Of a stretch of DNA of 64,000 bases, positions 3,459 through 50,200 are shown one piece after another. Origin of the DNA: Onchocerca volvulus (Eukaryota > Nematoda > Chromadorea > Rhabditida > Onchocercidae). The notes beneath the pieces were generated by a model that ran no database searches, was not told where the DNA came from, and was given only the letters and a program-made list of their open reading frames with translations. Location of the stretch: assembly GCA_000499405.2 (NCBI GenBank), contig HG738137.1, positions 14,377,661-14,441,660 on the forward strand, in the 5' to 3' direction. Both the position numbers and the translations under genes were made by a program. Within the stretch, counting starts at the first letter, position 1. The number at the start of each line of letters is the position of its first letter.

Positions 3459-5433
3459 TTGGGTTATTCATTCGCATATTTTTGGTTTAATTATTAGTTT
3501 GAAATTATTGATTTTTTCAATTTATTTATTGATTAATCAAGGCCATATGGATCACATAACTACATATTCTAAATAATGCAATATCTATTATTTATATGTT
3601 TATTTCGTAATTTTTTCATTTCATTCTTCAGTTTTATTTCTTTTTTTAGTAATATAACTTATTGTTATTTAACTTTTGTAGAAGAATGTGAAAAATATCG
3701 ATTATCGACTGGTTTTTATTTTTTGTCTTTTTTTTTTTTCAATAATATAATTTATTATAATTTGATTATTTCGTAAAAAAAATATCGATTATTAACCGGT
3801 TTGATATATAGGTATAGATGAATTATGAATTAGACATATAGATATATTATGGATTAGACTATATACATATAGATGTTTATATGTATCATAAGAAATATAG
3901 GTGTTTATATATATCATAAGAAATATAACAGGTAACGACAACCTATCGTACCTATCGTTTTTTTTTTTTCTCTGTTCAATTCAGAGAAAAATATGTTTTT
4001 AGTTCAAAAATTATTTCTGAAAACATTAACGATGATGTAACATAGAAAGAAAATGAACAATTTCTTATTTCTTTCTTTTTTTTTCCTATTTATACGGTAA
4101 CTTTTATTGAAGAAGAAAATACTTCAAATTGAAATTTATATGAAATTCATATGATAGCTTTGAAAAAAGTTAACTGAGCAAGATGAGATTAATTTTGATG
4201 CCATATAACTTTTATTTCATATTTTGATTCTTTATTGCATGTATATGTATATATATGTATGTTTGGTATTAAATAAGAAATAAGAATTGATTTGATTTTT
4301 TATTTTGTTTTTTTTGTTTTTTATTTTTTTCCAATTACCATATGTTAATAATAATAATATATTTATCTATTCTTTTTGACTTTTATTTTATTGAAAATTC
4401 TCCATTGCTTTCTCAAAAATCATCTCTCTTTTCAAGCCTTTCGTTCAAAATTGTTCATTTTTTATCTTTTTTTCCTACTTTCTTTGTCAGCTAACTTTCT
4501 TTATCTCCATTATTATTTCTCTTAGGCTAAAAATTTCTACTGTATTTTATATATATTTTGACAGCTGACATTATAAGCGAACGTCTTCCAAGAAATATAT
4601 CAACTATTCGAAGTTCTTCTTCTGGTTGATTGTTTGGTGCATCAGTTGCACTGTTAACCCCTCTTTCGCTATTTCAATGATAATGCATTAGTTTAGTTGA
4701 AATTTGAGAAGTCTATTTCCATAAGATCATAGTTCGTTCATTTAATTTTACATACTTAAATAATGAAATCGTTTGATTATTTCAATTGTTCAAATATGCA
4801 ACAAATAAGTAAATATCACGAAATATTATAATTTTCATTATTTTCATTTCATTATTCAAATCTTTTTCAAAGTTTAATATATAAAATAATATTATAATAA
4901 AAATGATTTGCATATTGGTCAATTTTTTTTTTTTTTTCATTTTCGTTTATTTCATTGCCTATTATCATTATTCGAGATAATTTGCCATTATGATTAGCTA
5001 AGATATTTTCAAATATAACACAGTTTTTCCTTTTATTTCAGATTTCCATTCCAATTCCAGAAAAGCAAAGCCTGCAGTTTGCTGTAGATTTGTAGATATT
5101 TTAAATTGCATCAAATCAAATTTGCTAGGAGTGAATGGTGGTTACGATCGTGTTGCAGTGCTATTTTTATTGCTATTATTCTGCTTTCTGGATACTTACT
5201 GAATTTACTTAAAAAAAAGTCCAAAATTTTTAAAGGCATATACTATACTAATTTTGTCAGGTCCAAGGAATTCCTTTTTTTTTCTCTCTTTTTTTGTGTT
5301 CCTTTTTTTCTATTGTCATTCATTCAGATTTCTGCTTTCATCCGTTCTAATCTGTCCATTCATTCATATTTCCCTTATTTCTATTTTCTTCAAATTTTAT
5401 TGAAGCAATTACTTTTCTTCTTCCACTGTCAAT

Positions 5434-24730: not shown

Positions 24731-25286
24731 TGTCGCCGATCTTCTTTACCGTAACAATAATAAGGTTCTTGTTTTTTATCGTATTGTTATCGAATATTTC
24801 GCGGCATCTCAAACTTGGGTAATTAAACCTTTATTACAGAAATTTAGATAACACAACAATGTACGAACAATTACAAATCAATTATATCAATAAAATAATG
24901 TAAATGACGATTTATTAATATGAGAAATGGGGATAAGGATATTATTAAGAAGAAAATTGAAATATCCGAGTGGAGGATCCAATCGCATGCTTCGTTAGCC
25001 TTCCTTTAAAATGATGCACAAAGAAGCATCTCCATAATATGAGAAAGCTTTTTTTTGTTAGCGCATGAGATAGCGCTTTTATGGTATGATTTACAACAGT
25101 ATAAAACAAAGGTTAAAACATTTAACATAGTCATAAAACAAACTTAAGCTACTTAACAAGGCCATAAAACTGAGTCATTTAATTTGTAACAAAGAAATAA
25201 ATTTTTTACAACCATCAACGGTTACAAATTATTTCCTTTAAAACAAAGAAATCACATTCCTCTAATCCTCGCTCATTTCAGCGACA
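24731..25286 (-). mobile_element. Solo LTR A (SL1-containing family) with target-site duplication
   Basis: 556 bp bounded by TGTCGC...GCGACA inverted termini. CTTTG is duplicated at 24726-24730 and 25287-25291. It is about 80-90% alike by eye to LTR B (26589-27029), longer through extra sequence near 25125-25240. Sense is -, judged from the AATAAA signal. It carries an exact 22-nt SL1 match at 24808-24829. No internal genes, so it is a solo LTR left by LTR-LTR recombination. Confidence 0.85.
24808..24829 (-). promoter_or_regulatory. Exact SL1 spliced-leader sequence inside LTR A
   Basis: On the - strand the 22 bases run from GGTTTAATTACCC to GTTTGAG, identical to the nematode SL1 leader. The base before its first G is the end of an AATAAA signal (complement of TTTATT at 24830-24835). 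The base pair after it is AT, so there is no GT donor in this copy. Confidence 0.9.
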
Positions 25287-26588: not shown

Positions 26589-27029
26589 TGTCGCCGATCT
26601 TCTTAATCGTGACAATAATAAGGGTTCTCGTTGGTACCTCAAACTTGGGTAATTCCTTTATTACAGAAATTTAGATAACACAATAACATACGAACAATTA
26701 TAAATCAATTATATCAATAAAACAATGTAAATAATGATTTAGTAATATAAGAAATGAGGAAAAAGACATTATTAAGAAGAAATTTGAATAACCCAGACGA
26801 AGGAACCAACCGCATCCTTCGTTAGCTTCCTTTAAAATGATGCACAAAGAAGCATCTCCGTAACATGAAAAAACTGTTTTTTGTTAGCGTATGAGATAGC
26901 GCTTTTATGGTATGATTTACAACAGTATGAAACAAAGGTTAATGCATTTAGTATAGCCATAAACGGAGTCATTTAGTTTGAAACAAAGAAATCACATTTG
27001 TCTGATCTTCCTCGCTCATTTCAGCGACA
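26589..27029 (-). mobile_element. Solo LTR B (SL1-containing family) nested in another LTR
   Basis: 441 bp with TGTCGC...GCGACA ends. AAGGA is duplicated at 26584-26588 and 27030-27034. Closely similar to LTR A over most of its length. It sits inside the 5' LTR of the 4.5-kb nested element, so it is one of the youngest insertions in the pile. Confidence 0.85.
26638..26656 (-). promoter_or_regulatory. SL1 sequence with a 3-nt deletion inside LTR B
   Basis: On the - strand the element reads AATAAAGG then AATTACCCAAGTTTGAG. Three bases (TTT or equivalent) are missing from the 22-mer; the rest is intact. It is followed by GTACC, a GT donor-like context. Confidence 0.85.
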
Positions 27030-27494: not shown

Positions 27495-28794
27495 ATCCCT
27501 GCGTGAAACATTTCTTCGTGATAGTGTTGTACAATAAGTTCTGTTATTTTGTTATGTCTAGGGAGATATATTGAGTATAATACACCTTTTCGTTTATTTA
27601 GGAGTTGTAATCGATGTACAAACTACCAAAAGTCATCTGCGTAGTGTAAACCATATTTTTCCGTTTCTTTTGCTGTCAATCCTTCTGATTGAGCTTGTCT
27701 GATTAGTAATTCCAAAGCAAATTCATGTTCATATGAAGTAATAAGATTCCCTTCTATATGATTCAACCACGGAATTTATTCTTGGAGATTAATTTGAGAA
27801 ATTTCAAGGCTCTAATGGTAGCTTCTATCATCCTTGAAAATTTGCTGAATCGGCTTGTGTCTATAAACTTAATCCATGTTTTCGCGAGATTCTTTTCAAT
27901 AATTGAGACCATTATCTTTTTTCCTTCTTCATCTTTTAATTTTTCTTCGTATAAACTTTCTTCGTATTCATCATGAATATTATATTCCCATTGAGGCCAT
28001 TTCGATTCTTCATTTTTTAGCCACTCGGGTCCTGTCCACCAAGGTTGAAAATTCGCTAATTGATTTGGTGAAATTCCCTTTGTAGCTATATCCGCAGGAT
28101 TACATTCACTTGGAATATATCGAAATGAGCATTGGGATGTTCGTATCTCTTCAACTCGATTCTGTATAAATCTTGGTAGAAGATGTGACTGATTTTGTAT
28201 CCAATGCAATGCGTATTGCGAATCTGACCATAAAGTTATTTTCGCATTTTCAAAGTCTAACTGTTTAATGACGAATTTGACTGCTCTTACTCCAATCAAT
28301 ATTGCTAGCAATTCTGCTTTCGGTATTGTCATGCCTTTAATTGGAATTATTCGTGACTTGGCGAAGATCAAGGATATTTTTGTGCCTTGCTGTGCATATA
28401 CTGCTGCAGCATATGCGCTAGTAGAAGCATCCGTAAATACCTGGAAATTTAATTGTTGTGATGGATCAATTGCTATACGTTGAATTTTCTTCATTTGGAT
28501 TGGCCATGAATTTATAAGCGATTTCCAAGTTTGAACTTCTTCTTCTTCTAACTTTTGATCCCAAGAAACATTCTTTTTCCAAAGAGTTTGGAGGAAAATT
28601 TTGAGTGATACCATCGTTGGCACTAAGTATCCTAACGGGTCAAATTGAGAAGCAATAAATTGCAATATTGTCCTTTTTGTTGGTTCCTGGTTGCTCCATG
28701 GTTTCAAAATTATTTCAATAGAATCGTTATGTGGATTCCAATTCATACCAAGAATTTTCTTCGTTTCATTTACCTCGGCAAGATCCTGTTCTGG
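27495..28794 (-). pseudogene. RNase H and N-terminal integrase of the host BEL/Pao element
   Basis: From 28794 downward the - strand encodes the RT/RNase H linker typical of BEL/Pao ([19 protein letters not shown]). RNase H follows with its acidic residues visible in FTDAS, PKAEL and LWSDSQYAL, and the C-terminal [15 protein letters not shown] motif. A stop at about 27763 ends the main open frame. Beyond it, 27500-27760 still shows the pre-integrase linker and the His pair of the integrase zinc-binding domain (YHEEMFHAG), in shifted frames. The 4.5-kb element is inserted directly after it. Confidence 0.85.
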
Positions 28795-29544
28795 TGTCGT
28801 GAAATTTTAATTGAATTGAATTGAGTTGTTGAGAGGTCCGACGAGCGCCAATATTACTACCAATATCTTGACCAGTGTTGATAGTCGTTGACTTGCGTTG
28901 ACTCGAGTGAGTGAGTTGAATTTGGTGAGATGTGTTGACTGGACTTGAAGTGTGTTGAATTAATGCCGGATTGGAATAATCCTTTATTGGTACAAAAAAG
29001 GGAAATGAATAGTGGAAGCGTAACCGTGATGATTTGCAAACGTAAATGGTAACAATGATGATATTGTAAGCGAGATACAAGCTTATATTTGTTAAGTAAT
29101 GGGAGTGGTTTTATTAACCAGCAGAATACAAGAAAAGTGGATTACAGTTTTCTCATGCTATGTAGGAGATGGTTGCATGTGAAACACATTTTTTTTTTGT
29201 TATAGATTAGCAAACAGATGTGCATAATTATCCATGTTGAAATGAATACAAATTAGATAACTGATTCATCTCTCAATGTGGGAAAACGTTTTAAATTTGC
29301 ATAATGAGATAAATCCTTTATCTAAGAGATGCTTTACAAAAAAAATAATTTTAACAGATGTTCAAGATAAGGATGTAACAGATGTTTAAGATTATCTAAA
29401 GAAATTTACATAATTTTTTCAAATAGAATAATTTTTTATAGTGTAAGTACATAAAAGTTAAAACAAATCAAAAGAAGAAATTTATTTTTTATTTATTTAT
29501 TAGTTTAAGATTTGTCGAGTTTCGCGAAATTGAAATTCGCGACA
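28795..29544. mobile_element. Solo LTR of a third family at the RT/RNase H border
   Basis: 750 bp beginning TGTCGTGAAATT and ending AAATTCGCGACA (imperfect inverted ends). TCTGG is duplicated at 28790-28794 and 29545-29549. The reading frame of the host element is continuous when the insert and one TCTGG are ignored. No internal genes and no SL1 match. A TTTATTGG (AATAAA on -) near 28982 suggests - strand sense. Confidence 0.85.
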
Positions 29545-30680
29545 TCTGGTATTTGCGCGTTGAATTCTTTATTGTTTGAGAAAAATTCTCTTATATTCAT
29601 GGAAGCATCCTTGAAGATCGATTTCATTTCCTTATAGATTTGTAACGGGTTTTTTGTTTGTTTGATTGGTAAAATAATGTTGTCGACATAAAGGTTTTTT
29701 CTGATTTCATGGGCAATTTCTGTTCCATAATTTTCGAGATGGTGGTTTAGAGTTGCGGACAATAAAAAAGGTGATGATATTATTCCAAACGGAACTCTTT
29801 GGAATCGATAACATATTAAGTTTTCTTCTGTAACTGGTTTTCGGACATCCTTTAACCACAGAAATCTCGTGCAGTTCCTTTCAGTCGGCAGCAGTTCCAA
29901 CTGTAGAAAAGCCTTTTCTATATCGGCTATTATAATATTATCCATTGCGCGGAAACGAAGTAATATTCCTGCTAAATCAGGGAGTGTAGTAGGTCCTCGG
30001 TACAAAACATCATTGAGACTTTTCGATCCTTTGAGATGAGCTGAGGCGTCGTAAACGATTCTAAGTTTCGTGGTCGATTTATTGGGTGTTATCACTTCAT
30101 GATGTGGTAAATAATGGATAATTCCCACCTGTTTCAATTTATCGTCTACCTCTTCAATAATACTGGATTGCAGTTGATTTTTGATTGTTTCATCATACAT
30201 TGAAAGTAGATGTTCGTCATTCTGAAGTCGTTTAACCAATGATTTCAATCTCCCAAAACACAACATAAAATTATCATTTAACTTGAAATTTGTTTCTTTC
30301 CAGGGCCACGATACTTGATATCGACCGTTTATTTTCGTAATAGTTTCTTTAAATCGTTCTAAAACTCCTTCATCGTCATTACTATCAGGCTTTTCTTGTA
30401 TTCCTATAACTTCTAATTTCCAAAATTGATCGATATCTGGAGTGGTTTTATTAAAGAGTACAGTTGTTGGCACAACTGATACGTTTGGTGATGTCACATT
30501 TTGCGTGATATCACATTTCGGATGAATTATTTCGTTGACATTATATGATTCCTTTATATATCCTGTACCGGTCAATATTGGACCAACCTTGGTCTTTATT
30601 AAGGAGAATCCTGATTTTGCTTTTCGACTCTTCTTGAATTGTATGAAATCTGAAAAATAATCAGCTCCGATAAGTATTTT
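29545..30680 (-). pseudogene. Protease C-terminus and reverse transcriptase of the host BEL/Pao element
   Basis: The - strand keeps a long open frame (29505-30575; its last 40 bases lie in the solo LTR). It shows IIADIEKAFLQLEL (first catalytic Asp), the FGIISSPFLL region and the active-site box as YVDN, where YVDD is usual. This may itself be inactivating. Upstream (30590-30680) lies the DYFSDFIQF piece of the protease. The RT would copy element RNA to cDNA. Confidence 0.85.
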
Positions 30681-32600
30681 GGGGCGTTTCTTCCGTTTTA
30701 ATTCGCCATCTAATCGGATTTGATTCAGAATGGTTAATACCTTATGTTGATCGAAACGACTGGTAATGGATTGGTCAAATATTCTAAAACACTGACTTTG
30801 AGTGGTATAATTCTTGAGTCTGTAGTTTTTATTCCGATTACTGTTGTATAACTTGGGTAGGACGTTAGCTGTTTATTAGTGAAGGTGGAAGTTTTTATCA
30901 TCAAATATTCACCTTCTTCTAGATTCAATCACCGTGCTAATTTTCTCGAAATTAACGATGATTCTGAAACTGTATGAAACACTACTATAGCGTCTTCTTG
31001 AATCTTATGCATGGTTGGATTGACGACTTTAATTTTCTTACATAAAAGTAGAAATTCATCCTTTTTTTTGTTTTCCATATCTTTTCATCTGGTGTAATAA
31101 CGTTCACAGAGTTATTTCTTTCCTTGTCTAATCCAACATATTGTTCGTAGTCCTTGTACTTATTTTGACATAGCGTTGTGTTGTGATAACTTTTACAAAA
31201 GAAACAAGTTCGTTTTCTATTTCTACAATCATTTGCAGTATGTCCACTTTCGAGACAGTTGTGGCAAGCATTCAATTTTCTCAAACGTTTTATTCTTTAT
31301 TTCAGAGTGGAATAAATATGGCACTCATTGTCCCAATGATTCTTATTACAAAAGGCGCAAGGGTCTTCTTATTTTGGTTCCTTTTGGTTTTCCATTTTTT
31401 TCAGATTTCTTTGGCACATTCGTTACCAAAGCTAAAGTTTCAGGGCTATGTTGTAAATATGACTTTGACTTACTAGTGAATACTTTTTGCTCTTTCATAT
31501 TCAAAGACTGACTTCTCATTACTTTCTCATTTATTAGTACGATTTCCTCGAGAAAGCACATTAATTTTTTCACTGACCATGACTCTTCTTTTTTTTGTTG
31601 ATGAACTTTATCTAGTATCCAAGTGGCAATCTGCTTTCTATATTATCTCGATGCTAGACTGTTCCAAATTTTCTCCCATAGCTTTCAATTGTCGAAGTAT
31701 TCTTTTAGCCACTTCAGTAGTTATTTTCCATTCAATAGCTCAGACTGTCACTCATTACACAGCGATTTTTTTTATGGTGAATGGTGATTCGCGGGATTTA
31801 TCAATGAGAACTCTCCTTGTTACATCATAATTTTCAGGAGCAATGCCGTACCTCTTACTGCTAACTAGTCGCGTGGCCGGCTCCAGCTAGTTCGAAAGTT
31901 CCTAAACAGGCGCCTTATCTATATAGAAACATGCGCCTATTCGAATGCAACGTTATATCGAAATTTCAAATCAATCGGAGGAGAATCTGAAACGTTATGT
32001 AAAAATGAACAATGCAGAAAGTAGGCGTGGTCAATAAATTCAGTCGGGTCACTTACTTTTATCTATCAAGGTGTTACAGAAAGAAAAAAGTATGTATATT
32101 TAAAAAAAAAAAAAAAAAAAAACATGCGACGCATTCGAATGCCACGTTATCTCAAAATTTCAAAAGCAATCGGTGAAGAATTTACAATGCTGTGTCAAGA
32201 ATAACAACAAACATATTTTTATTTATATAGACAAGCGTTCCTTTTAGACAAGATACTAGATAATTCAGCTTTTGAATATCTGGTATATTTTGAAAATGCA
32301 TAGCAGCATCAAAGCTATTCGAGAATTCCTTCCAGGATTTCGGATCTCCACTAAATGTGGCTAGTGGCAATTGAGACAAGTTTATTGTTGCATGATAGGT
32401 GGAGGTTTTTTTTTTTTTTTTTTGAGATCGACTCTCTGATATCTACTTCACTTAAATGTTCATTTCAAACTAATGATATCTTCTCTTGCACAAGTTAGTA
32501 AATTTAAGATACCTTGAGTCGTCGACTATTTCGGCATATTTCTTTCCTTCCTTTTTTGTTGATGCAACTGTCGTTCTTTAAATGAGATCTAATCACTTCT
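30681..32600 (-). pseudogene. Gag and N-terminal protease of the host BEL/Pao element
   Basis: The - strand reads an N-terminal gag piece near 32440-32600 and a capsid start at 32245-32379 (LPLATFSGDPKSWKEF, a DUF1759-type motif). After the insert at 31866-32237 the capsid resumes (YGIAPENYDVTRR). CCHC knuckles lie at about 31190-31290 (CHNCLESGHTANDC, CFFCKSYHNTTLC) and protease-like residues at 30734-30980. Frameshifts separate the pieces. Confidence 0.75.
31866..32237. mobile_element. Dispersed repeat inserted in the host gag
   Basis: About 370 bases interrupt the gag frame. It contains two related segments, 31944-32015 and 32125-32200, each with an ATTCGAATGC(A/C)ACGTTAT...AAATTTCAAA...CAATCGG core, and a poly-A run at 32101-32120. 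It ends in TTTATATAGA. The same core recurs at 52210-52300. Ends are uncertain and no clear duplication was found. The layout resembles a truncated non-LTR (RTE-like) or SINE tail; this is inference. Confidence 0.55.
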
Positions 32601-32720: not shown

Positions 32721-35270
32721 TGAGATAAGTAATGTCTGAAATTGTGGTTATTTGGGATTGGAAGCTGGTGTAGATGATTTTGTTTTGTAACGAATTTTTT
32801 TGATATGATGGACTGTATTCGTCCTAACTACGATACACAATGAATTGATCGATAATACAAAATGTTGATAATATATCGATAATTGACTAGGGATGTTATC
32901 TGAATAGGTGGATTAGAAATTTTGGAAGCATTGATAAGGATAAAGCAGCGTAGTAAAAAGCAATGAATGATCGGATGGTAAAATTGGGCGAATGAAGAGG
33001 AAAAATGAATGCTAGATGAAAGAATGGGAAATCGATTGTCTGGCACCTCTCCAAATAACCCGTTGAAATTGTTCACATATGTAAAGTAGTTTCGTACAAT
33101 GTACAACATATTCCTATAGTGCACAGAGGAAAACGATAGCGCAGAGAAAAAACATAAAGAGATACGAGAGAGACAAAATTTACAATATGTTAGCATAGCA
33201 CAAAGAAAATTGTTTACTTCATGTTAGCATAGCACAATAAAATTTGAAACATATTGTTTACAATTTCTAAGATCAATATTTTTGACTTAAGAGTACTTTT
33301 GCATTGAGAATATTTCGGTTTTTTTTTCGACAAATACTGATGGTATTATCATTACCGACAACAGGTATTCGCCAAGAATTCACGATACATCCAATGAAAT
33401 TCATTTATCTCACAGGGATTTAGTTTTTGCCTGATTTCTATCATCCAATCTACGTTATTAATATCCTCGACATTTTTCCAGTTTAAATATCATTCCTATC
33501 TTTCAGAGTAGCCTAATTTTTGTTATTTCAACACTAAACGCTAAAAATATTGGTCAAGTTATTTTAAAATTCTTAGTTAAATCATTAAAAAAAAAAAAAA
33601 AAAAATTTTCTTCTGACTTTTCTTATTTTTCTTGCTATTCATGATCAAGAAAAATATTTTCCAAAATTTTCCTCTTATTTTTCTTTCCCTTCCTTTGTTT
33701 ACTTTCACAAATTTAAATTTCAGCAATTAGTAAAATAAAAAATGAAAAGAACGAATAAAGGAAAATGAAAAAAAAAATCAATTAAAATAAAAAAAATGTA
33801 GAAATGAGTACCAACAAAGATAGAATTGATTTGTGAATTTCGGTATAATTTTTTGTTGCCATTTATTGAAACTAACAATTAATTAAAATCTGTTTCAAAA
33901 GACATAGTTTTGAAACGATAACACATCTCAAAAAACGAAATTATCGGCAAAAAAAAAGATAAAACGATAATAAGCAAAAAATGAAATTTGGAATTACTTA
34001 TGGTAGAATCTTAAAATTTTATTAAAATTCCTCTTTCGAAATTATGTTTATTGTTCTATTATAATTCAAATATTAATAATAATCAAAGAATTTAAAAATT
34101 AAGTTTGCAGATAATTAAACGAACTTAGCACTGTGACTTTTTAAAATTCAATTTTTTTTTTTTTCTGAATCAGCGATTCCAACTAAATTAGCATTTAATT
34201 AGCATAATGCTAATTTTAGCCAGGCAGAATCCATTTTTCTATTTATTCGATCTTCAATTTCTGTTTTTATTTATTCATCTTTTTTTCGAGGCAGTCATTA
34301 ATAATCTAGTCAATATAATTGCTCATCAATTAAAATATGAGATTTTTTCGAGATATTTGATAAGTTGCAAATAAAATCTGTAGCTGTCGGAATTTCCATT
34401 TGACTATTCAGAATCTTCTTTTTCACTGTTTAGAATCTCATCATGACTCTAATATTAAGTTTAATATTTTGTTAATTCAATGGCACAAAATGCTATTGTT
34501 TTCGTTTCTTCCTTTTTTTCTTTTTTTGATTTTGCTTAATAAATGGTTTGCAAAAAGTAAAATAAAAAATAATGCAAGAAAGAAAATTAGATTCACCGTA
34601 AAAGCTAAAAATAATTTGCAAATTTTCAAATTAATGAAAGATTAAAAATGAAAGAAAGATTCAAAATGGTTGAAATATTTAGACGTTTTTAAAATGCAAT
34701 TCAATTGCAATTCATTTTAATTTCTCGTAATCATTCAATTTTAATTTAATTATTATTTATTATAATAAATATATTACTACTCTTTTGTATTTTTTCATCT
34801 ATATTTCATCTTATTTAATGAAAAATTTAAATTGAACAAAAGATTTATTGATGAATGTTGATGGGTTATATTCAAAATTCATTGACCTATTTAGATTTAG
34901 GAAAAATATTTGAAAGAAAATCATATTTTTCGAAATTTATTTCATCTATTTGTTTCTTCCTTTTTGCCGATAATGCATACAAATCTAAACAAATACATCC
35001 GTTTAATTTATCATTCACAAAAAAGAAAAGAGGAAAATAATGACAATTGTTGTTTGATTGTCTCATTTCTTCTTTTTTTTTGTTTTTTCAAAGAAGGAGA
35101 AAATTTCGTTTCGTTTCTTCCAAAAAAAAAAAAAAAAAAGGAAGACAAGGAAATCTTTTTCTTATGCTTCGTTTTAAAAGGAAGACAAGGAAATCTTTTT
35201 CTTATGCTTCGTTTTAAAATTTCAACATTGAATTTTATCAAACATTTGACAATTCGATTGGTCGTTGTTC

Positions 35271-35850: not shown

Positions 35851-38800
35851 ATGCAACAATATCATTTGCATACTCCTGCTACTTTTGCAGCTACCGCATG
35901 TGGAATAGCATTTGCTGCATTAATTATAATATTTCCAATAATTTTAACTGAAATAACACAAATGGAAGAAGAGTTAGCACTACATCGTGGTCAATATCAA
36001 ACTATGTCTGATACCATTTGGCAATATTTAATGGAAGAAAATCAACAGTTACGCTTAACTCGTGCCGTACGGCGAAATCGATCGCAATGTAAGTTCAAAT
36101 AATCTGACATTTCTTGATTACTTTTTAATTCATATGCAATTCAAGATGAATTGATGAATGAAATGATTTTAGTTCATCATTGATTTGTATGATTCGATCA
36201 AATATTTCCCTCCAAATCTCTTTGTTTTGTTTTCTTTTCTGTTATCTTTATTTCAGTAAAGTTTGTTTTTGAAAATGGAAAAAAATGTTTGAAAAAAATT
36301 TTTTTGTTTAAATAAGAATGGTTTTTATTTTTTCCAAAATTCAAGTTGTAATTTTTCATAGATGATGGTGTTGGAGAAGAAAATGGTTATGGGAAAGGAA
36401 TAGCAGAAAATGGAGGTGTGAAAGGTGAAAATGGCTGTCCTCGGGGACCACCTGGACCACCTGGTGAACCGGGTGAAAAAGGTTATGAAATGTTCAATTA
36501 TTGTTGCTTTTTGGTAGACATTTAATTTTAAAGATATGCATAATAAAAAAATTTTGGAAAAATTTCATTTAAAATTTAATAAAACCAAAAACTCCATTGA
36601 CAATAATTCGAAGTATTTAGGAATAGCATTTCAGGAGTGAATGGTTTGGATGGAATACCTGGTAAGGATGGTATTCCAGGTATTGCAGCGGTACCGTATG
36701 CAGCTTCAGAAAAAGGTCCATGTGCGCCATGTCCACCTGGAAGACCTGGTTTACGAGGCTATAAAGGAAAAAGAGGACCACGTGGACCGATTGGTAAAAA
36801 AGGCGAGATTGGAATGCCTGGTAAATGAATTTTGCATTTTTTTAATAAAAACCTAAAATTCATTTGAGGAATAAATATGTATCGGAAACGGTTTATTTCT
36901 TTCCCGTTACTATAGCAAGTAATTTCTAGTACTTATTTCTCTTCAGCTACTGTAGCATACCATTTCCAATATATAGTTTTCTCCAGCTATTGTAGTAAAT
37001 TATTTCTAGTATTTATATTCTTCAGCAATCGTACAAATTATTTCCAATGCTCATTTCTTCCCAACTTAGTGCTTATTTTCTTCCGGCTTTTCGAATTTTC
37101 AATATAGGAGAGCTAAACATTGGAAAAGGCAATTTTACGCCAAATAATTAATGATAATTTTGATAGTTATTATTGAGAATGAACAAAAGAAAATTTATTT
37201 TATAGAAATATATTTATTTTTAAATTTTAAGGACGTGATGGGGCGGTTGGTGACGAAGGACCTGAAGGTGATATTGGTCCAGTTGGACCACAGGGTCTTC
37301 CTGGTGAAAAAGGTTAGCAAGTAAAAGCATATTTTAAGTTGAAATTTTCTAATAAATTGTACTAAAGTTTCTTTTTTTTTTTGCATATATAGCATAAGGA
37401 ACTGTTATGTTATATACTATGAGTTATTTTAATAAAATTATATAGGTAAAGTTAATTTATTGGAGCAAAATTTTGATTAATTTAAACTTTTTGTTCAATT
37501 TCATATTCGACGTAATAAATGCTTTGTTACAGGTTTACCTGGACTAGATGGTTATCAGTATATTCGTGGTCTACCTGGAGAAAAAGGTGAACCTGGACCA
37601 CAAGGACCGGAAGGAGATCAAGGTCCACCTGGCGAACGTGGGGATCAAGGCGAACAAGGTAGTTATAGATTTGTAAATAGAATAAAATTTTTAAAATTTC
37701 AATTGATTAAAAACATTTTGATCACTTTATTTATTAAGGATTGCCTGGAGAACCTGGACGTCCTGGACCACCAGGTCCAGAAGGACTAACGGGCGTTCCT
37801 GGACCAGAAGGACAACCAGGACCAGTGGGTATGTTGTTTTAAATTTTAATTATATGAATTCCATAATTTTTTAAAATTAACTGGTTATTTTTTTAGGTGC
37901 TGATGCGGAATATTGTCCTTGTCCGGCGCGTGATGGTAAAGGGTACGATACCGGATATGAACAGACAGAGAAATCACCGGCTAGTAAGACTGTAGAAAGT
38001 ACCAATGGATTAGCAGATGTTTATCAGAAAATTAAACCAGAAGGAAAAACTGATAAAGTGACAGGAACAACTAAAAAACCACCAGGAATACGTACGAAAA
38101 ATGGTAAATGATTATTAGAATAATAAAATAATCGAATAAATAATCGAAAACTTTCTATGCAATATAAACTGATCATTCATTTATTTTACTAATGCTATTA
38201 TTCAAAAAAAAAAAAAGAAAGAAACAAAAAATGATAATAATATTTTGAAATTTATCAATAAATAAATAAGTGAATAATTTATCAAAGAATTCAGTCATTT
38301 CTATTTCTTATATACATGACTATAATAGAGCATCTTATTATAGTTTTTCCACATCATTCAACGTTTTGTTATGGTAAATAAAATTAGCATAAAGAAATTT
38401 TATAAAAAAATTGAATTAATGTTGAAAAAATTTATGACACAATATTTATTTTCTACATTGTTACATATTTCTTTTCAAAATATTTGTCCGATTTTTTTAA
38501 TATTCATTTGCATAAATTTCAGCAAATTTATGTTGCTTAATTTAAACTAATTATATTATTACAATTAAAATGGCATCATATAAATAGATGATAACAATTG
38601 AATTTGTGTAGTTTTAAAATTAAAAAAGAAAGAAAAATTAATTGTCTTCAGCTAAAGCCTTCAATTAGCAATTAGCAAATATTGCTTATCGCTAATCTCG
38701 ATTCAAATATGATAATAATATTTTATATAACGAAAATTCGTTAAAAATTCTTAACGATAAACATTAAAGCTAATTTTTTTTTTTTTTCAAATCTGATATT

Positions 38801-41854: not shown

Positions 41855-42266
41855 TGTCGGGAAAGTTGTTTTGTAGCACGAGCGAATCTCAAACTCGGAA
41901 ACTGACGCAGCGGCAAAAATAAAAATTATCGTGGAATTTGCTTGTTGCACAACCTCAAACTTGGGTAATTAAACCTTTATTATAAAATCACATAATTCAA
42001 AACGTGTGAAACAATTAAAATATCACTCGATCAAAGTACAATTCTCACGAAGGTAACCTAATCTAACCGATTCCGGAAACACACCCTTCCAAAATGATCC
42101 TTTGGTCAGGATCATCTTCTTATTTGTAGAGGGAAGATCCAGCTAAAATTTGATCCACGATAAGGCGCCATTTTTAGCGCATGAGAGCGCGTTCTTTTTG
42201 GCGCGTGGCCTTGACTACAGTATTTGAATTATTGATTGAACATCAAAAGAACAGTTCGAAACGACA
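41855..42266 (-). mobile_element. Degenerate LTR C (SL1-containing family)
   Basis: Matches the reverse complement of LTR D (46768-47200) over its centre. Shared parts include the SL1 segment, the AAGAGGC/GATCC block and the GCGCCATTTTTAGCGC...GAGAGCGCG block at 42170-42205. Ends are diverged: TGTCGG at 41855 and ACGACA at 42266 are the best candidate termini, with no target duplication. Sense is -. It is older than LTRs A, B and D. Confidence 0.7.
41954..41975 (-). promoter_or_regulatory. Exact SL1 spliced-leader sequence inside LTR C
   Basis: On the - strand the 22 bases equal SL1 although the rest of this LTR is diverged. It is preceded directly by AATAAA (complement at 41976-41981) and followed by GTTGTG, a GT donor-like context. 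Confidence 0.9.
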
Positions 42267-43155
42267 AAAATGATTGAAACATACAATTGATATTATGAAG
42301 TTTATCGGAATTTTCGACATGATTTTCCATTTTCAAAATGTATCAAATTTTATTTTTTTCAATGATTATATTATTGAAATTTCTGAATGTTACATGCTGG
42401 ATATAGCTAGTATTCTGATACAGATTTATGATTCCAACTGCTTAGAAATTTCAATCTACATCCCAGTACTAATCAAACATCGAGAAAGATTATCGAAAGT
42501 AATGATCAAACAATACTATTTGCCGTTAAATAACGAAGTCTCATAATATACACAAACAAACATATAGTAGCTACCACATTTCAAGTTTCATCTAATTATT
42601 TTAATAAAGTTTCATAATAACTTCAATAATATCTTTTTGAGCGATAAATAATTGTAAGGAGGCGGGATAACAACTTCAGGAATGTTGGTTAAGATGAAAT
42701 ACTTAATTGAGATATTTCTATCATTATTATTGCTATAACTAGTTCTGTCACATCATCATTCAACGCGTTGCTGATATCCTAAGAAGAGACGGGCGAAATC
42801 TTTTCATAGTGTCTAAAATAAAATTATAATATTTGTTTTCAAACTAAATTCGAGTTTTTATGTTGAATTGAATATTAAACTTTCAACAAAATGTTAAAAA
42901 CAAAGGAATAATTAAAATTCGAATTTTTTGTTAGATGCATATCCTGAGATATGAAGAAAAGCAATTTATTTTTGATTTTTTTCCAAACTTCCGCAGGCAT
43001 ATCACTTATGCTTATTCCTTTGATCATTCCGACTTCATTGATATGCCGAGATGATCAAAACAACAGCCGCATAGATCTATATTAAATAGGACATTACATG
43101 ATATTTCAATTTGACTACCTTTTTGATATTGAAAGAAATTACCATTTTCAGCGAA
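42267..43155. other. Upstream region of the seven-transmembrane gene
   Basis: Contains a 90-codon open frame (42274-42546, +) without a recognisable domain, splice context or neighbour match; I do not call it a gene. A TTTTCAG acceptor ends at 43151, four bases before the receptor start. Confidence 0.4.
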
Positions 43156-45555: not shown

Positions 45556-46767
45556 AGTTTTTAAAAATAAAAAAAATCTATCAGTATCATCAAGTTCTAA
45601 AAAAATACTTTTACTAATGATAAACCTTGTAGCTTTTTTCTTTTCTTTTTTATGAACCTTATCATAGTTGATGAGATTTTTATGAAACTAAAACTTATCA
45701 AGTTTATATTGTTTTTTTACGTAGTTTCCTGTTTGATTGTTTCCTTTTTTTTTTTTCTTTGTGGACTCCAAAATTATTCTTTAAAATTATTTAATGAAGG
45801 AACAAAAAAATCAATTATTATTTGTTTTTTAATTGACAAATGAAAAAGTATTTACTGCTTTCTTCATAAACTTACCAATCATGTTTTACGGTACTTATTT
45901 TTTTTTTTTTTTTAATTCACGTAACTTCCCAATAATTTCATGTAATTACAGAATTATTATGAATGTTGTATTTAAGTGGACAAAATTTAATCACTGAATA
46001 TATTCAATACAAACAACATGAAATAAGCACAAATTAAACGATATGTTAAATTATCACTTTAAAAATTTCAACGAAAAAAAAAATCAATAATGAATATAGT
46101 GGTGGTGGATTTTTAAAAAAGTTATAATAATATTAACATGAATTTCATAGATTTATAACAATTATTATAAATGTAATTGATTGCATTGAAATGATTTACA
46201 AATTTATAATTGTATTAATGAGATTGGATCTCGATCCAAAATATTAAATTTTTTAAATAAAGAATATTGAATTTTTTAGATAATGAATATTGAAGTTTTT
46301 TACATTACTCCAAATTATTATTTTTTTGAATAATGATTTGCGAATTTATATTTGTATTAATGAGATTGGATCTCAATCTTTTCGTTTTTAATATTTTTCC
46401 AAAATAGTAGATTTTTTAAATGAAGAATATTGAATTTTTCAGGTAATGAATATTGAAGTTTTAAGTAACGAATTATTAGAAATTATTCTAATCGTTCGTC
46501 TCATTTATGAATTTCGAAATTACAAAAAAAGTTGTTTAATCAATTTCATTTTTAGAAATCAATATAGTATTTGACATATGTAACATAATATGCTATGTAT
46601 ATTGCGTATAATTAACCAAACAACCCGTAAACCCTAACATACTTCCAAAATTGTTCGTTTTTTTTTAATTAATTAATTAATTTGTTTTTATTTATTATTT
46701 ATTAATCATTGTGTACTTGTTATTATTTATTATAATTTACTTATGTTGCTTTTCTTTTTTTAGTTGT
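45556..46767. other. Intergenic AT-rich DNA
   Basis: No exon supported. Contains an imperfect tandem duplication (46191-46470) described separately. Confidence 0.5.
46191..46470. repeat. Imperfect tandem duplication, unit about 140 bp
   Basis: Both units carry AATTTATA(A/T)TTGTATTAATGAGATTGGATCTC, then GATTTTTTAAAT-like and GAATATTGAA...GTAATGAATATTGAAGTTTT. Units start near 46191 and 46333. Divergence suggests an old event. Confidence 0.75.
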
Positions 46768-46986
46768 TGTCGCTGAAATCGCGAGGAATAGCAGAGAAGA
46801 AGTGATTTCTTTGTTTTCCAAATGTATCTCTGGTTTGTTTGTGTGGATATATTTCTTTGTTTATAGGTCAAATGGGTTTGTACTTTATTCCTTTGTTGTA
46901 GTCAAGGTTACGCGCCAAAAAAAACGCGCTCTCAGGCGCTAAAAATGGCGCTTTATTGTGATCAAATTCTAGCGGGATCCTCCCTC

Positions 46987-46994
46987 TATAAATA
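46987..46994 (+). promoter_or_regulatory. TATA-like element in LTR D
   Basis: TATAAATA about 115 bases upstream of the SL1 segment on the sense strand. LTR C has the corresponding site as TACAAATA. It could be the core promoter of the element. Confidence 0.4.
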
Positions 46995-47109
46995 AGAAGA
47001 GGCTCCTGACTATAGAATCATCGTCAAAGGATGTGCTACCGCGAGGTTAATTGGTTGTATTGATATTGTATTTGTAGTGTATTGTCGTGTTATCATATTT
47101 TATAGTAAA

Positions 47110-47131
47110 GGTTTAATTACCCAAGTTTGAG
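47110..47131 (+). promoter_or_regulatory. Exact SL1 spliced-leader sequence inside LTR D
   Basis: The 22 bases equal SL1. They follow TTTTATAGTAAA, which holds both an acceptor-like TTTTATAG and an AGTAAA variant signal. They are followed by GTTTCG, so GAG|GT could be a donor. Confidence 0.92.
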
Positions 47132-47200
47132 GTTTCGATGACATTACAACAAGAAAGAAGAACTCTCAATAATTGTCACGGTCATCGAAGATCTGCGACA

Positions 47201-50200
47201 GTTGTGTTAAGGGTATGGTGTTGATAAGGTTACACTGCGGAAAAATCCATAAGATAGCGATCATTGAAGACGATCAATAAAAGACGATGAATTAATACTT
47301 TGATTTCTTACAATTAAATTACTTCCTAAATAAGTTAATTAGAACGAAAGATATATAATGAAAAATTAAAAATGTTGTTATGAAGAACAATATTTTCACA
47401 AAATATTGTTAATAATAAAATACCATGCTACTAATCATACGACTTAATTACTAATGACTATATTCTTTAGCATTGTTGAATAATTATTACCAATTGTAGT
47501 ATTCAATTTCTAATGCCATATTCTTTGATATTCTTGTAAAATTTGTAGACTAAAAAAAAAAAACCTAATTTCGACTTGTTCCAATATACTTTAAATATGA
47601 ATAAAATATTTAAATTTGCGTTTTAACAGGCTTGTTTTTTGTGTTAAAAATCAACAAGGAAATAATCGTAAAAATAATGATCAAGTAAGTTTATTAACCG
47701 AATCTGGAATGTTGAATCGACTTATTAAATAAAGCATCATTAAATAAAAGGATCAAAAATCCAAAGTTTATAGAATTTATCAAAAAATTTGGCAAAAAAA
47801 TGCCAAACTATAATTTAATTTTTATAAAAAAACAAAGAACAAAGTCCACTCATATCAACAGACTGATAGAACTATCAATGCACTGATTATAGGCTGCTTC
47901 AAAAATTTTTTTTCTTTTTAAAAAAGCAAAAATGTTCCTCCTCGTTCCATAATTCTTATTTTCTTAAAAAAAAAAAAAGGAAAAAATTTCTTCGGTTCAT
48001 TTAAATTTGGTTTAAAGAAAAAAAAAAAAACTTTGGAAATTACTCGTTTAAATCATTTGCAAAATTTTAAATAATCATTAAAATGTCTGAATTATATGTG
48101 AATAAACAATATTAAATGCATTCTTCGTTATCTGCTGACTAATTTTTTTTTTTTTTTTTTTATTGCGAAACGATTCCAGCCTTTTCGTTTCTATTTAAAT
48201 TCACACAAAAATTTCAATTTCTCGATATGATTGCACATTTTTTTACAGAAAAATTGATTGCAATTGTTTCTCACATTTGCTTTATGTTGCTTTTTCATTT
48301 TTTTTTTTTTTTTTCATTTTTCCCATTATTCCCATTTTTTTTTAAAAAAAATTGGCTATCTATTCATTTTATTTTATTCCTTTCTTTCTTTTTTTTTCGA
48401 ATTAAAAAATAAGTGCTTTTTTTAAATTCATAAAATTAAACTATTATTGTATAGCTAAAATTAAAATGAGCAAACATTATATGTATAAAAAATTTCAATT
48501 ATTGTAATCGATAGTGACAGTTCAAATTATTTCTTTTTCTTATTCCGCAACATTTTTTTCTCGTCATCAATTAAATGATTGATTGTGAAACGAGAAACTT
48601 TTATTTTCAAAATATTTTGAAGTGTAAAATGATAGTTATTTACGACTTTAGTTGATTCATAATTTTGATGATATGATGCCGATTGTAATGATAACAATTA
48701 ATACGGAATTTTTTTTTTTTTTCGTTTTCTATCTGTTCAAACATTACATATATTTATTAAACTAAAATAATTACGATTCATATATATTAAACTGAAATCA
48801 TTAAACCTTATAAACAATTTTCAGATTATTTTATTGAATAATTGAACTTTTGGAATTTTAATGATTTAATTTAAATACATATATTAATTGATTCATTTAA
48901 ATTTCAAGATAGCTTCATCAATTGATTAATTTATTTATTTAAATTTTAATAGTGATTCGATAGTTTATTTAAAATGTTGTAATTTGCTTCATCGATTTTA
49001 TCAAATTCATTTATATTTTAGTGACGCTTTGTTCAGCTGTCTAATTGCTAAATATTTACAATTATTATTGTGATAATTACTCATTTACTTATTTATTTAT
49101 AAACTTCTCCTTACTTATCGGCAAATTTTTCTTTTTCCGAAATTTTATTCATTGTTTAATTAATGCAAATGTATGCATAAAGTTGCAATTAAAATTAAAA
49201 TATTATTTAAATTAAATGTTAAATATAATTTTTCAGAAAAATAAAATTGAAAATTTCTCTTTTTGGCTAAAATTGATAATTTAAATTAAATTGAATTTTC
49301 GAATTATTCAGGATTCAATTATTATTTTAAAAATGCAATAATCAGCATGCAAAAAAATGATGTATAATTTTAATTTGAATGGAAATAATAAAAGAACTTT
49401 AATAAATAATATTAAAATTCTCTTCTTGAGAAAAAAAAAAAAGATATTAGTAAAGGCAAAAGTTATAGATACACAGCAATAAAAATGTATCTCAACAATT
49501 AAAAAATTAGGTAGCATTGCAAATGGTAAATGCAACTGATAAGAAAATTTATCATTGAAATATCTGAAAGTGCCTTCTACGTTCGCTTTCCATTTTTGCT
49601 CCAAATTTTATTTTATTTTATTTTTTATTTTTTGATTTGAATAAAATAATAAAATAGTATAAAATTTTCGTTTTTTTTTTTTTTTTCTAAATAACAGTAA
49701 TCTTTCGATATGTGTTAAATTCAATAAAAAAACAAGAACAGAAAACTTTGAAAATAAAAAAGCTTCAAAATGTAACAAACAATTTTTTAACAAATTGAAA
49801 ATGAAAAAAAATGTTACAAATTTATCTTTTACATTTTTAACTATTATTACTATTTTTTCCAGAAACAAATACAAAATAAAAATGTGAAGAAAGAAAAAGC
49901 AAAAAAAAGAAAAGGAAAAAAAAAATGAACTTTAAAATGCAACAATTAATTTTTCAACAATTTTGAAAACAGAAGTTTTAAAATGCTATAAATCATTTAT
50001 ATTAATTTTGCTATTGTTATTATAAAATAATAACATTGATTTGTGAAAAAAGTAATAATCTAATTAATTAAAATGGCCAGATACGATTGAAGAAGCAAAA
50101 GGAGGAAAGTAGGCTAAATTTAGGGATTGAAAAGAGCGGAGGAGGTAGAAGATGCGAGAAAAAAAAGAAACAGAAGAGAATTTTAATTCTAAAGTTTAAC

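What the first reader, a model, noticed from the sequence alone, without database searches (positions are those of the whole stretch)
46768..47200. Nematode SL1 spliced leader embedded in LTRs of a retroelement family
Three LTR copies (24808-24829, 41954-41975, 47110-47131) contain the full 22-nt SL1 leader without a mismatch. A fourth (26638-26656) has it minus 3 nt. The copies differ elsewhere, yet the leader is exact even in the degenerate LTR C. This points to selection on, or repeated renewal of, this segment. SL1 normally reaches mRNA 5' ends only by trans-splicing from SL RNA. I recall a report of a spliced leader inside the LTR of an Ascaris element (Tas), which should be checked; for this family I know of no description.
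Basis: partly seen in the sequence, partly recalled or inferred. Interest (0 to 1): 0.92.

Follow-up and report, generated by a model that had tools for sequence, protein, structure and literature searches.

The report
Worm retroelements carrying host spliced leader
In a filarial worm genome, several families of virus-like mobile elements carry a copy of the worm's own 22-letter mRNA leader at one fixed place in their end repeats, with scars suggesting that the worm's leader-adding machinery rewrites it as the elements copy themselves.

Summary
Three exact SL1 22-mers lie in the window where shuffles give none. LTRs A, B and D are bounded by 5-bp target duplications, so SL1 is inside the LTR. 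Of 434 exact SL1s genome-wide, 220 continue as SL RNA genes do and 184 have AAA directly upstream. SL1-bearing LTRs read here form at least six groups whose U3 bodies do not match each other. In copies found with whole LTRs as query, SL1 is the most conserved 22-mer (D) or among the most conserved (A); an AATAAA-like hexamer abuts it in 46 of 56 and a purine follows in 56 of 56. Ten lineages, by a nearest-relative criterion, carry an extra TTTGAG or one-base variant after SL1, exactly what trans-splicing at the internal AAG of an LTR-borne SL1 would leave.

Best reading: SL1 is the R region of these BEL/Pao elements, supplied at the RNA 5' end by trans-splicing and so rewritten from host SL RNA. 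RNA evidence is missing. Foster et al. 2020 already reported SL1 flanking Brugia PAO elements and inferred leader addition; the LTR-internal placement as R, conservation tests and scars are what this adds.

The parts
46768..47200 (+). LTR D, solo LTR (433 bp), TGTCGC...GCGACA
   Evidence: 53 matches listed in the genome, pieces included
46763..46767 (.). target-site duplication GTTGT, left of LTR D
47201..47205 (.). target-site duplication GTTGT, right of LTR D
47110..47131 (+). SL1 22-mer in LTR D; proposed R region; 69 nt before LTR end
47104..47109 (+). AGTAAA, poly(A)-signal position (AATAAA in 39 of 56 LTR-homology copies)
47132..47200 (+). proposed U5 of LTR D
   Evidence: inference
24731..25286 (-). 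LTR A, solo LTR (556 bp), TSD CAAAG, lying next to degenerate gag-like sequence
   Evidence: gag-like is my reading, no family match
24808..24829 (-). SL1 22-mer in LTR A
26589..27029 (-). LTR B, solo LTR (441 bp), TSD TCCTT
26638..26656 (-). SL1 lacking three T in LTR B
41855..42291 (-). LTR C, degenerate; limits approximate, 5' limit uncertain
41954..41975 (-). SL1 22-mer (outer copy) in LTR C
41888..41899 (-). decayed inner SL1 tail (TCCGAGTTTGAG) before a second U5-like stretch in LTR C
27763..28806 (-). Pao peptidase A17 fragment of a neighbouring BEL/Pao element
   Evidence: PF05380, E 8.5e-46
29505..30872 (-). DUF1758/reverse transcriptase fragment of a BEL/Pao element

Best explanation
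SL1 is the R region of these BEL/Pao LTRs, and the host's trans-splicing apparatus supplies it. Steps, marked shown or inferred. (1) Shown: SL1 lies inside the LTR at one fixed place, in most copies with an AATAAA-like hexamer directly upstream, and with a short U5 (about 30-140 nt) downstream. (2) Inferred: the hexamer of the 3' LTR puts the RNA 3' end in or just after SL1, so the RNA ends U3-SL1-poly(A). (3) Inferred: transcripts start upstream in the 5' LTR. The stretch up to SL1 acts as an outron, and SL1 from SL RNA is trans-spliced at ...TTTGAG|R, giving RNA that begins SL1-U5-PBS. (4) Inferred: strong-stop DNA ending in the SL1 complement anneals to the SL1 at the RNA 3' end (first strand transfer). 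Both new LTRs then carry the freshly added SL1. (5) Shown, read as scars: when the acceptor used is the AAG inside the LTR's SL1, the product is SL1+TTTGAG+U5. Several lineages have exactly this 6-nt addition while their nearest relatives do not. Rewriting from a host RNA would keep the 22-mer exact while U3 and U5 drift.
For: Position inside TSD-bounded LTRs (exact 5-bp TSD at the aligned ends in 21 of 56 copies). Hexamer within one change of AATAAA in 46 of 56 LTR-homology copies; purine after SL1 in 56 of 56. Conservation: D family SL1 0.0157 versus 0.0774 for the rest, only 3 of 412 windows as low, all overlapping SL1; A family 0.0345 versus 0.0896, 14 of 535 windows as low, all within the stretch from 22 nt before SL1 to 4 nt past it. 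D x A cross-family identity 0.952 in SL1, best non-overlapping window 0.823, mean 0.594. Six U3 groups. With a cluster-3 LTR as query, 17 of the 25 partial alignments that span SL1 end 0-3 nt past its last base. Scar: 7 exact places genome-wide, control 0; nearest relatives of ten scar lineages lack it, L149 being 99% identical to unscarred L065 and L068; 6 exact 6-nt tandem duplications in 146 copies compared with their nearest relative, all at SL1, none at 5252 equivalent microhomology sites elsewhere. In winC, L088, L159 and L161 the outer SL1 is perfect in three and has one change in one, while an inner SL1 tail before a second U5 has decayed. One LTR pair (L093/L094, 99.8% over 559 nt, A17 between) has SL1 at both ends. 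C. elegans Cer1 mRNA can receive SL1 (PMC3315495, passages).
Against: GAG is a poor nematode 3' splice site (recalled). [quoted passage not shown] On trees, internal versus terminal changes in SL1 do not differ from the rest of the LTR (Fisher p 0.69 for D, 0.18 for A); A has two internal SL1 changes, which strict renewal in every cycle should not allow, and the one in D (L019/L021, neighbours) may be a local duplication. In family A the 22 nt upstream of SL1 are as conserved as SL1. D and A LTRs stay alignable through U5 (75% over 156 nt), so the edge at SL1 is not sharp in every comparison. Acceptor use at AAAG|G should leave tandem SL1s; none was seen in the held copies, and the genome-wide search did not complete. 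Four of the six scars in the control (L149-L152) were fetched because they had the scar; none of the 56 LTR-homology copies has it.
Confidence: 0.58

Rival explanations
1. One ancient capture of SL1 into an ancestral BEL/Pao LTR, then ordinary inheritance under purifying selection because the stretch is a working R or poly(A) region or a translation leader; the host does not rewrite it.
For: About 50-90 nt upstream of SL1 are also partly conserved between groups, so they probably share one ancestral SL1-bearing LTR. Internal changes in SL1 exist in A.
Against: Nothing in R function alone demands identity to host SL1 across six U3 groups. Scars recur at the one internal AG. Most divergent partial alignments stop at SL1 nt 22 or within 3 nt (17 of 25).
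Confidence: 0.25
2. The LTR promoter starts transcription at the first G of SL1, so the element encodes its own SL1-like 5' end and mimics trans-spliced mRNAs without trans-splicing.
For: SL1 lies where R should begin. In cluster 0, 11 of 24 copies have TATAAA 20 nt upstream of SL1, near where a TATA box could serve such a start.
Against: Does not explain TTTGAG scars. Outside cluster 0 the recurrent TATA-like words lie mostly 100-200 nt upstream (D: -123; clusters 1 and 3), and clusters 4 and 5 largely lack them. The abutting hexamer is poly(A)-signal-like.
Confidence: 0.1
3. The TTTGAG insertion is polymerase slippage between the two AGs of AGTTTGAG, unrelated to splicing; SL1 conservation then needs another cause.
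For: AG TTTG AG offers a 2-nt microhomology. The ATTGAG and GTTGAG variants could be mutated duplicates.
Against: 0 such duplications at 5252 equivalent microhomology sites in the same copies; but four of the six scars counted there had been fetched for the scar.
Confidence: 0.15
4. Chance, assembly artefact, or SL RNA pseudogenes.
For: SL RNA genes are abundant (220 copies with the SL RNA continuation); two of the loci read (L130, L131) look like decayed SL RNA genes.
Against: The LTR copies read lack the SL RNA continuation, many sit in TSD-bounded LTRs, they lie on C1-C5 in the capped lists, and they cluster with Pao peptidase on the same strand: 8 of 24 hits within 8 kb, 1 of 24 on the opposite strand, 1.2% at random.
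Confidence: 0.02

Closest known systems
SL1-flanked PAO elements of Brugia malayi (Foster et al. 2020, PMC7181701; passages read)
   Same: Exact or near-exact SL1 next to BEL/Pao elements, sometimes at both ends on the same strand; the authors infer leaders added to expressed elements and integrated with them.
   Different: In the passages read SL1 is 'flanking' within 1 kb. They mention no placement inside the LTR, no poly(A)/R role, no rate comparison of SL1 with the LTR, and no scars.
Tas of Ascaris lumbricoides (Felder et al. 1994; not held)
   Same: Nematode BEL/Pao element. That its LTR holds SL is recalled only.
   Different: Could not be checked.
Cer1 of C. elegans (PMC3315495; passages read)
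   Same: Nematode LTR element whose spliced mRNA can receive SL1.
   Different: Ty3/Gypsy; SL1 is added to a subgenomic mRNA, the 8-kb RNA was not trans-spliced at that site, and no SL1 within the LTR is mentioned in the passages read.
Loa loa BEL/Pao LTR repeat RF4 (PMC4586141; passages read)
   Same: About 600-bp filarial BEL/Pao LTRs, with some LTR stretches shared with O. volvulus.
   Different: SL1 is not mentioned in the passages; no word beginning 'spliced' occurs in the main text.
Bombyx Pao (title seen in a reference list)
   Different: Insect element; SL trans-splicing is not known there (recalled).

Membership tests
BEL/Pao LTR retrotransposons | Pao-type pol: peptidase A17/DUF1758, RT, integrase | tested here: met
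   PF05380, PF05585, PF00078, PF17921 in window fragments; A17 between paired SL1-LTRs L093/L094 and L109/L110. The window's SL1 LTRs A, B and D are solo, so the link is through these neighbours and pairs.
BEL/Pao LTR retrotransposons | LTRs with short terminal inverted ends and 4-6 bp target duplication | tested here: met
   TGTCGC...GCGACA and 5-bp duplications; exact at the aligned ends in 21 of 56 copies
BEL/Pao LTR retrotransposons | Primer binding site just inside the 5' LTR | tested here: inconclusive
   One 5' LTR (L110) is followed by TTTTTTGGTGCC; the matching tRNA was not tested
SL1 as LTR R region | Poly(A) signal just upstream of R's 3' end | tested here: met
   Hexamer within one change of AATAAA in 46 of 56 copies; cleavage site itself not mapped
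SL1 as LTR R region | RNA 5' end equals start of R | not testable with these tools
   No RNA data
SL RNA gene or pseudogene | SL1 followed by 5' splice site and SL RNA body | tested here: not met
   No RF00198 match in the window; the LTR SL1s read are followed by other sequence
SL-gene-targeting retrotransposons (SLACS/NeSL type, recalled) | Element inserted into SL RNA genes | tested here: not met
   SL1 is interior to LTRs whose TSDs differ from copy to copy
SL1-flanked PAO of Brugia | Same-strand SL1 at both ends of a PAO element | tested here: met
   Four of 24 A17 hits have exact same-strand SL1 on both sides; three of them (C3:11.02M, C2:22.59M, C3:4.51M) have one on each side at 2-4 kb

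The most novel reading that the evidence does not exclude
A retroelement lineage has handed one of its own essential replication sequences, the R region, to the host: every cycle host SL RNA writes a fresh SL1 into the LTR through trans-splicing, so this 22-nt part of the element's DNA is effectively encoded by another locus.
Probability: 0.5. Interest if true: 0.88.

Novelty: new variant of a known kind. Interest (0 to 1): 0.68.

Why it matters
It would explain how LTR elements survive in an animal that replaces the 5' ends of most mRNAs: trans-splicing should remove the 5' R that strand transfer needs, and using the leader itself as R turns this into an advantage. It also gives a DNA-level record of trans-splice acceptor choice (the TTTGAG scars), and predicts that elements should track SL sequence changes between nematode species. 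It warns that genomic SL1 matches near Pao elements are not SL genes.

Tried and rejected
SL RNA pseudogene in the window: rejected. Chance: rejected. SL-gene-targeting insertion: rejected, SL1 is interior and the TSDs vary. A clean 'neutral after insertion' signature from private versus shared changes (D private 0.0125 versus 0.0165, shared 0.0031 versus 0.0609; A private 0.0078 versus 0.0162, shared 0.0267 versus 0.0735) was not confirmed by the tree count, so I do not rely on it. A common TATA position was sought and is not uniform. Second full SL1 copies near SL1 were sought in the held copies: none, and best second sites are no better than shuffled SL1; the inner tail in LTR C relatives rests on its junction with homologous U5, not on that scan. 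Literature: searches listed no title or abstract start describing SL1 as R region of an LTR, and I read passages of seven papers only; most subscription journals are not held. A sample of cluster-0 LTRs by whole-LTR homology was located but its letters could not be fetched, so for the groups other than A and D SL1 retention was seen only in copies chosen by SL1, most of them also by the AAA before it. The LTR homology queries themselves contain SL1 (22 of 543 and 558 bases).

Full report
Source. The window lies in a 94.7-Mb assembly. Contig C3 is 25,485,961 bases, C2 plus C1 total 31.2 Mb, and C4 and C5 are 16.6 and 16.0 Mb. Cotton et al. 2016 (PMC5310847, passages) give four scaffolds of 16-31 Mb and an X of 25.5 Mb for Onchocerca volvulus, so the source is very probably that filarial worm (inference).

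Observation. Exact SL1 occurs three times, with none expected, plus one copy lacking TTT. LTR D is 46768-47200 with GTTGT duplicated on both sides; LTR A has CAAAG and LTR B has TCCTT. All three are solo LTRs, so SL1 is a part of the LTR: 69 nt before the end of D and 77 nt before the end of A. LTR C is degenerate but its SL1 is exact.

Genome scale. Of 434 exact SL1s, 220 continue GTAATTG as SL RNA genes do, and 184 have AAA directly upstream. Six match a pattern with a base other than A at -3 and other than G after SL1; I fetched five of them, and two of these (L130, L131) look like decayed SL RNA genes. The remaining two dozen or so were not classified. AATAAA+SL1 with up to 3 mismatches gives 665 places, control 0; that count can include array copies. 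I read 80 SL1-centred loci, 75 of them chosen for AAA or AATAAA before an exact SL1, plus three window LTRs. By U3 similarity they form six clusters of 24, 22, 13, 10, 8 and 3 copies, plus three singletons. Between clusters the U3 bodies give no match at that threshold, though the last 50-90 nt before SL1 are partly alike and the LTRs share TGTC/GACA-like ends. SL1 is preceded by exact AATAAA in 63 of 81 of these copies, a figure helped by the choice, and in 39 of 56 LTR-homology copies.

Link to BEL/Pao. Window fragments carry Pao peptidase A17, RT and an integrase zinc domain. The genome has 141 A17 matches. Of 24 with at least 60 bits on C1-C3 (one overlapping 25th row left out), 8 have an exact same-strand SL1 within 8 kb and 1 an opposite-strand one, against 1.2% for random sites; four have it on both sides. 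The other 16 have none in that list, which holds exact AAA-SL1 only. L093 and L094 lie 5.6 kb apart on one strand, are 99.8% identical over 559 nt (to the end of the stretches fetched), both with SL1 and with A17 between, so the arrangement was carried by an element active fairly recently. L110, a 5' LTR, is followed by TTTTTTGGTGCC, a PBS-like start.

Conservation in copies taken by whole-LTR homology. Sixty loci were cut from the LTR-D and LTR-A searches (30 of 53 and 30 of 45 listed matches). With L036 and L055 dropped (29 and 29 copies), SL1 differs in 1.6% of cells versus 7.7% (D) and 3.5% versus 9.0% (A). In D no window that does not overlap SL1 is as conserved; in A the 14 as-conserved windows all lie in the stretch from 22 nt before SL1 to 4 nt past it. 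SL1 is exact in 21 of 29 D and 15 of 29 A copies. Between D and A, SL1 identity is 0.952, while the best other 22-nt window is 0.823 and the mean 0.594. The tree count gives internal changes 1 versus 7.9 expected (D) and 2 versus 7.7 (A), but terminal changes are also low in D (8 versus 24.9; A 17 versus 22.6), and the internal/terminal contrast is not significant. I conclude that SL1 is constrained or rewritten during element replication, but that this sample cannot date when its remaining changes arose.

Edges. Anchored on SL1, identity between clusters falls from 1.00 at nt 22 to 0.49 at the next base, where it is nearly always A or G. The following T is shared at 0.92, and beyond it identity is mostly 0.2-0.4 (these copies were chosen by exact SL1, so only the flanks are informative). 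In a search with a cluster-3 LTR, 17 of the 25 partial alignments that span SL1 end 0-3 nt after it. D and A, by contrast, stay alignable through U5. The base after SL1 is a purine in 56 of 56 LTR-homology copies, as expected for AG|R at a 3' splice site, and in 77 of 81 others; the four exceptions are TTTGAG scars.

Scars. TAATTACCCAAGTTTGAGTTTGAG occurs at 7 places, control 0. Counting near variants, 14 of 152 held copies have TTTGAG, ATTGAG or GTTGAG after SL1; 13 of the 152 (L149-L161) had been fetched for a match to that pattern. Five of the 83 SL1-centred copies have it (L072, L073, L087, L088, L132) and none of the 56 LTR-homology copies. Nearest relatives of L088, L132, L149, L150, L151, L152, L153, L157, the L072/L073 pair and the L087/L154-L156 group lack it, giving ten lineages, eight with the literal TTTGAG. 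This is a nearest-relative criterion, not a tree; loss of older scars is not excluded. L149 is 99% identical to unscarred L065 and L068. Against nearest relatives, 146 of 152 copies show six exact 6-nt tandem duplications, all at this site, and none at 5252 places with the same kind of microhomology; four of the six are among the copies fetched for the scar, two (L088, L132) are not. Joining SL1 to the AAG inside an LTR-borne SL1 gives exactly this product.

Position dependence. winC, L088, L159 and L161 have a perfect (three) or one-change (one) outer SL1 near the hexamer and, ending 54-71 nt further in, a decayed tail TCCGAGTTTGAG or similar abutting a second U5 (ATTCGTTCGTGCTA or similar). 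That U5 matches the one which in L115 directly follows an intact SL1. The inner copy has been allowed to decay; the outer has not.

Mechanism. The simplest account of all this is SL1 as R: specified at the RNA 3' end by the abutting poly(A) signal, supplied at the 5' end by trans-splicing, and joined by strand transfer. Shown: location, conservation, edges, scars. Inferred: transcription start, use of ...GAG| as the usual acceptor, poly(A) site, and rewriting per cycle. Purifying selection on an inherited R without rewriting is the main rival.

Known and new. Foster et al. 2020 already reported 120 intrinsic SL1s in Brugia malayi, 60 within 1 kb of PAO elements, and inferred leader addition. 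Cer1 mRNA of C. elegans can receive SL1. I found no description of SL1 as an LTR R region in the searches listed under Tried and rejected, in a library that lacks most subscription journals.

Noticed in passing
L001, L008 (G000:C1:212-243 kb): SL RNA genes form a 313-bp tandem array; only RF00198 reached threshold in the two stretches scanned, so no 5S rRNA gene was found within these units, unlike the 5S-linked arrangement recalled for other nematodes.
   Followed up: partly
window 41855-41975 and L088, L159, L161: Tandem SL1-U5 arrangement inside one LTR; the spacer seems to resemble the PBS region (by eye). Recalls the tandem R of Bombyx Pao (title only).
   Followed up: partly
L011, L017, L018, L026, L030, L031 (D-family LTRs): These copies have a second match to the U5 end of LTR D shortly beyond the first, suggesting a U5 duplication in a subfamily.
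   Followed up: no
L035 (its LTR-D copy, just upstream of SL1): The hexamer-GGTTT stretch is duplicated with a T run between the copies, and the following SL1 is shortened.
   Followed up: no
window 36436-37796: Collagen-like Gly-X-Y repeats on the + strand (by eye).
   Followed up: no
window 35136-35215: Exact 40-bp tandem duplication.
   Followed up: no
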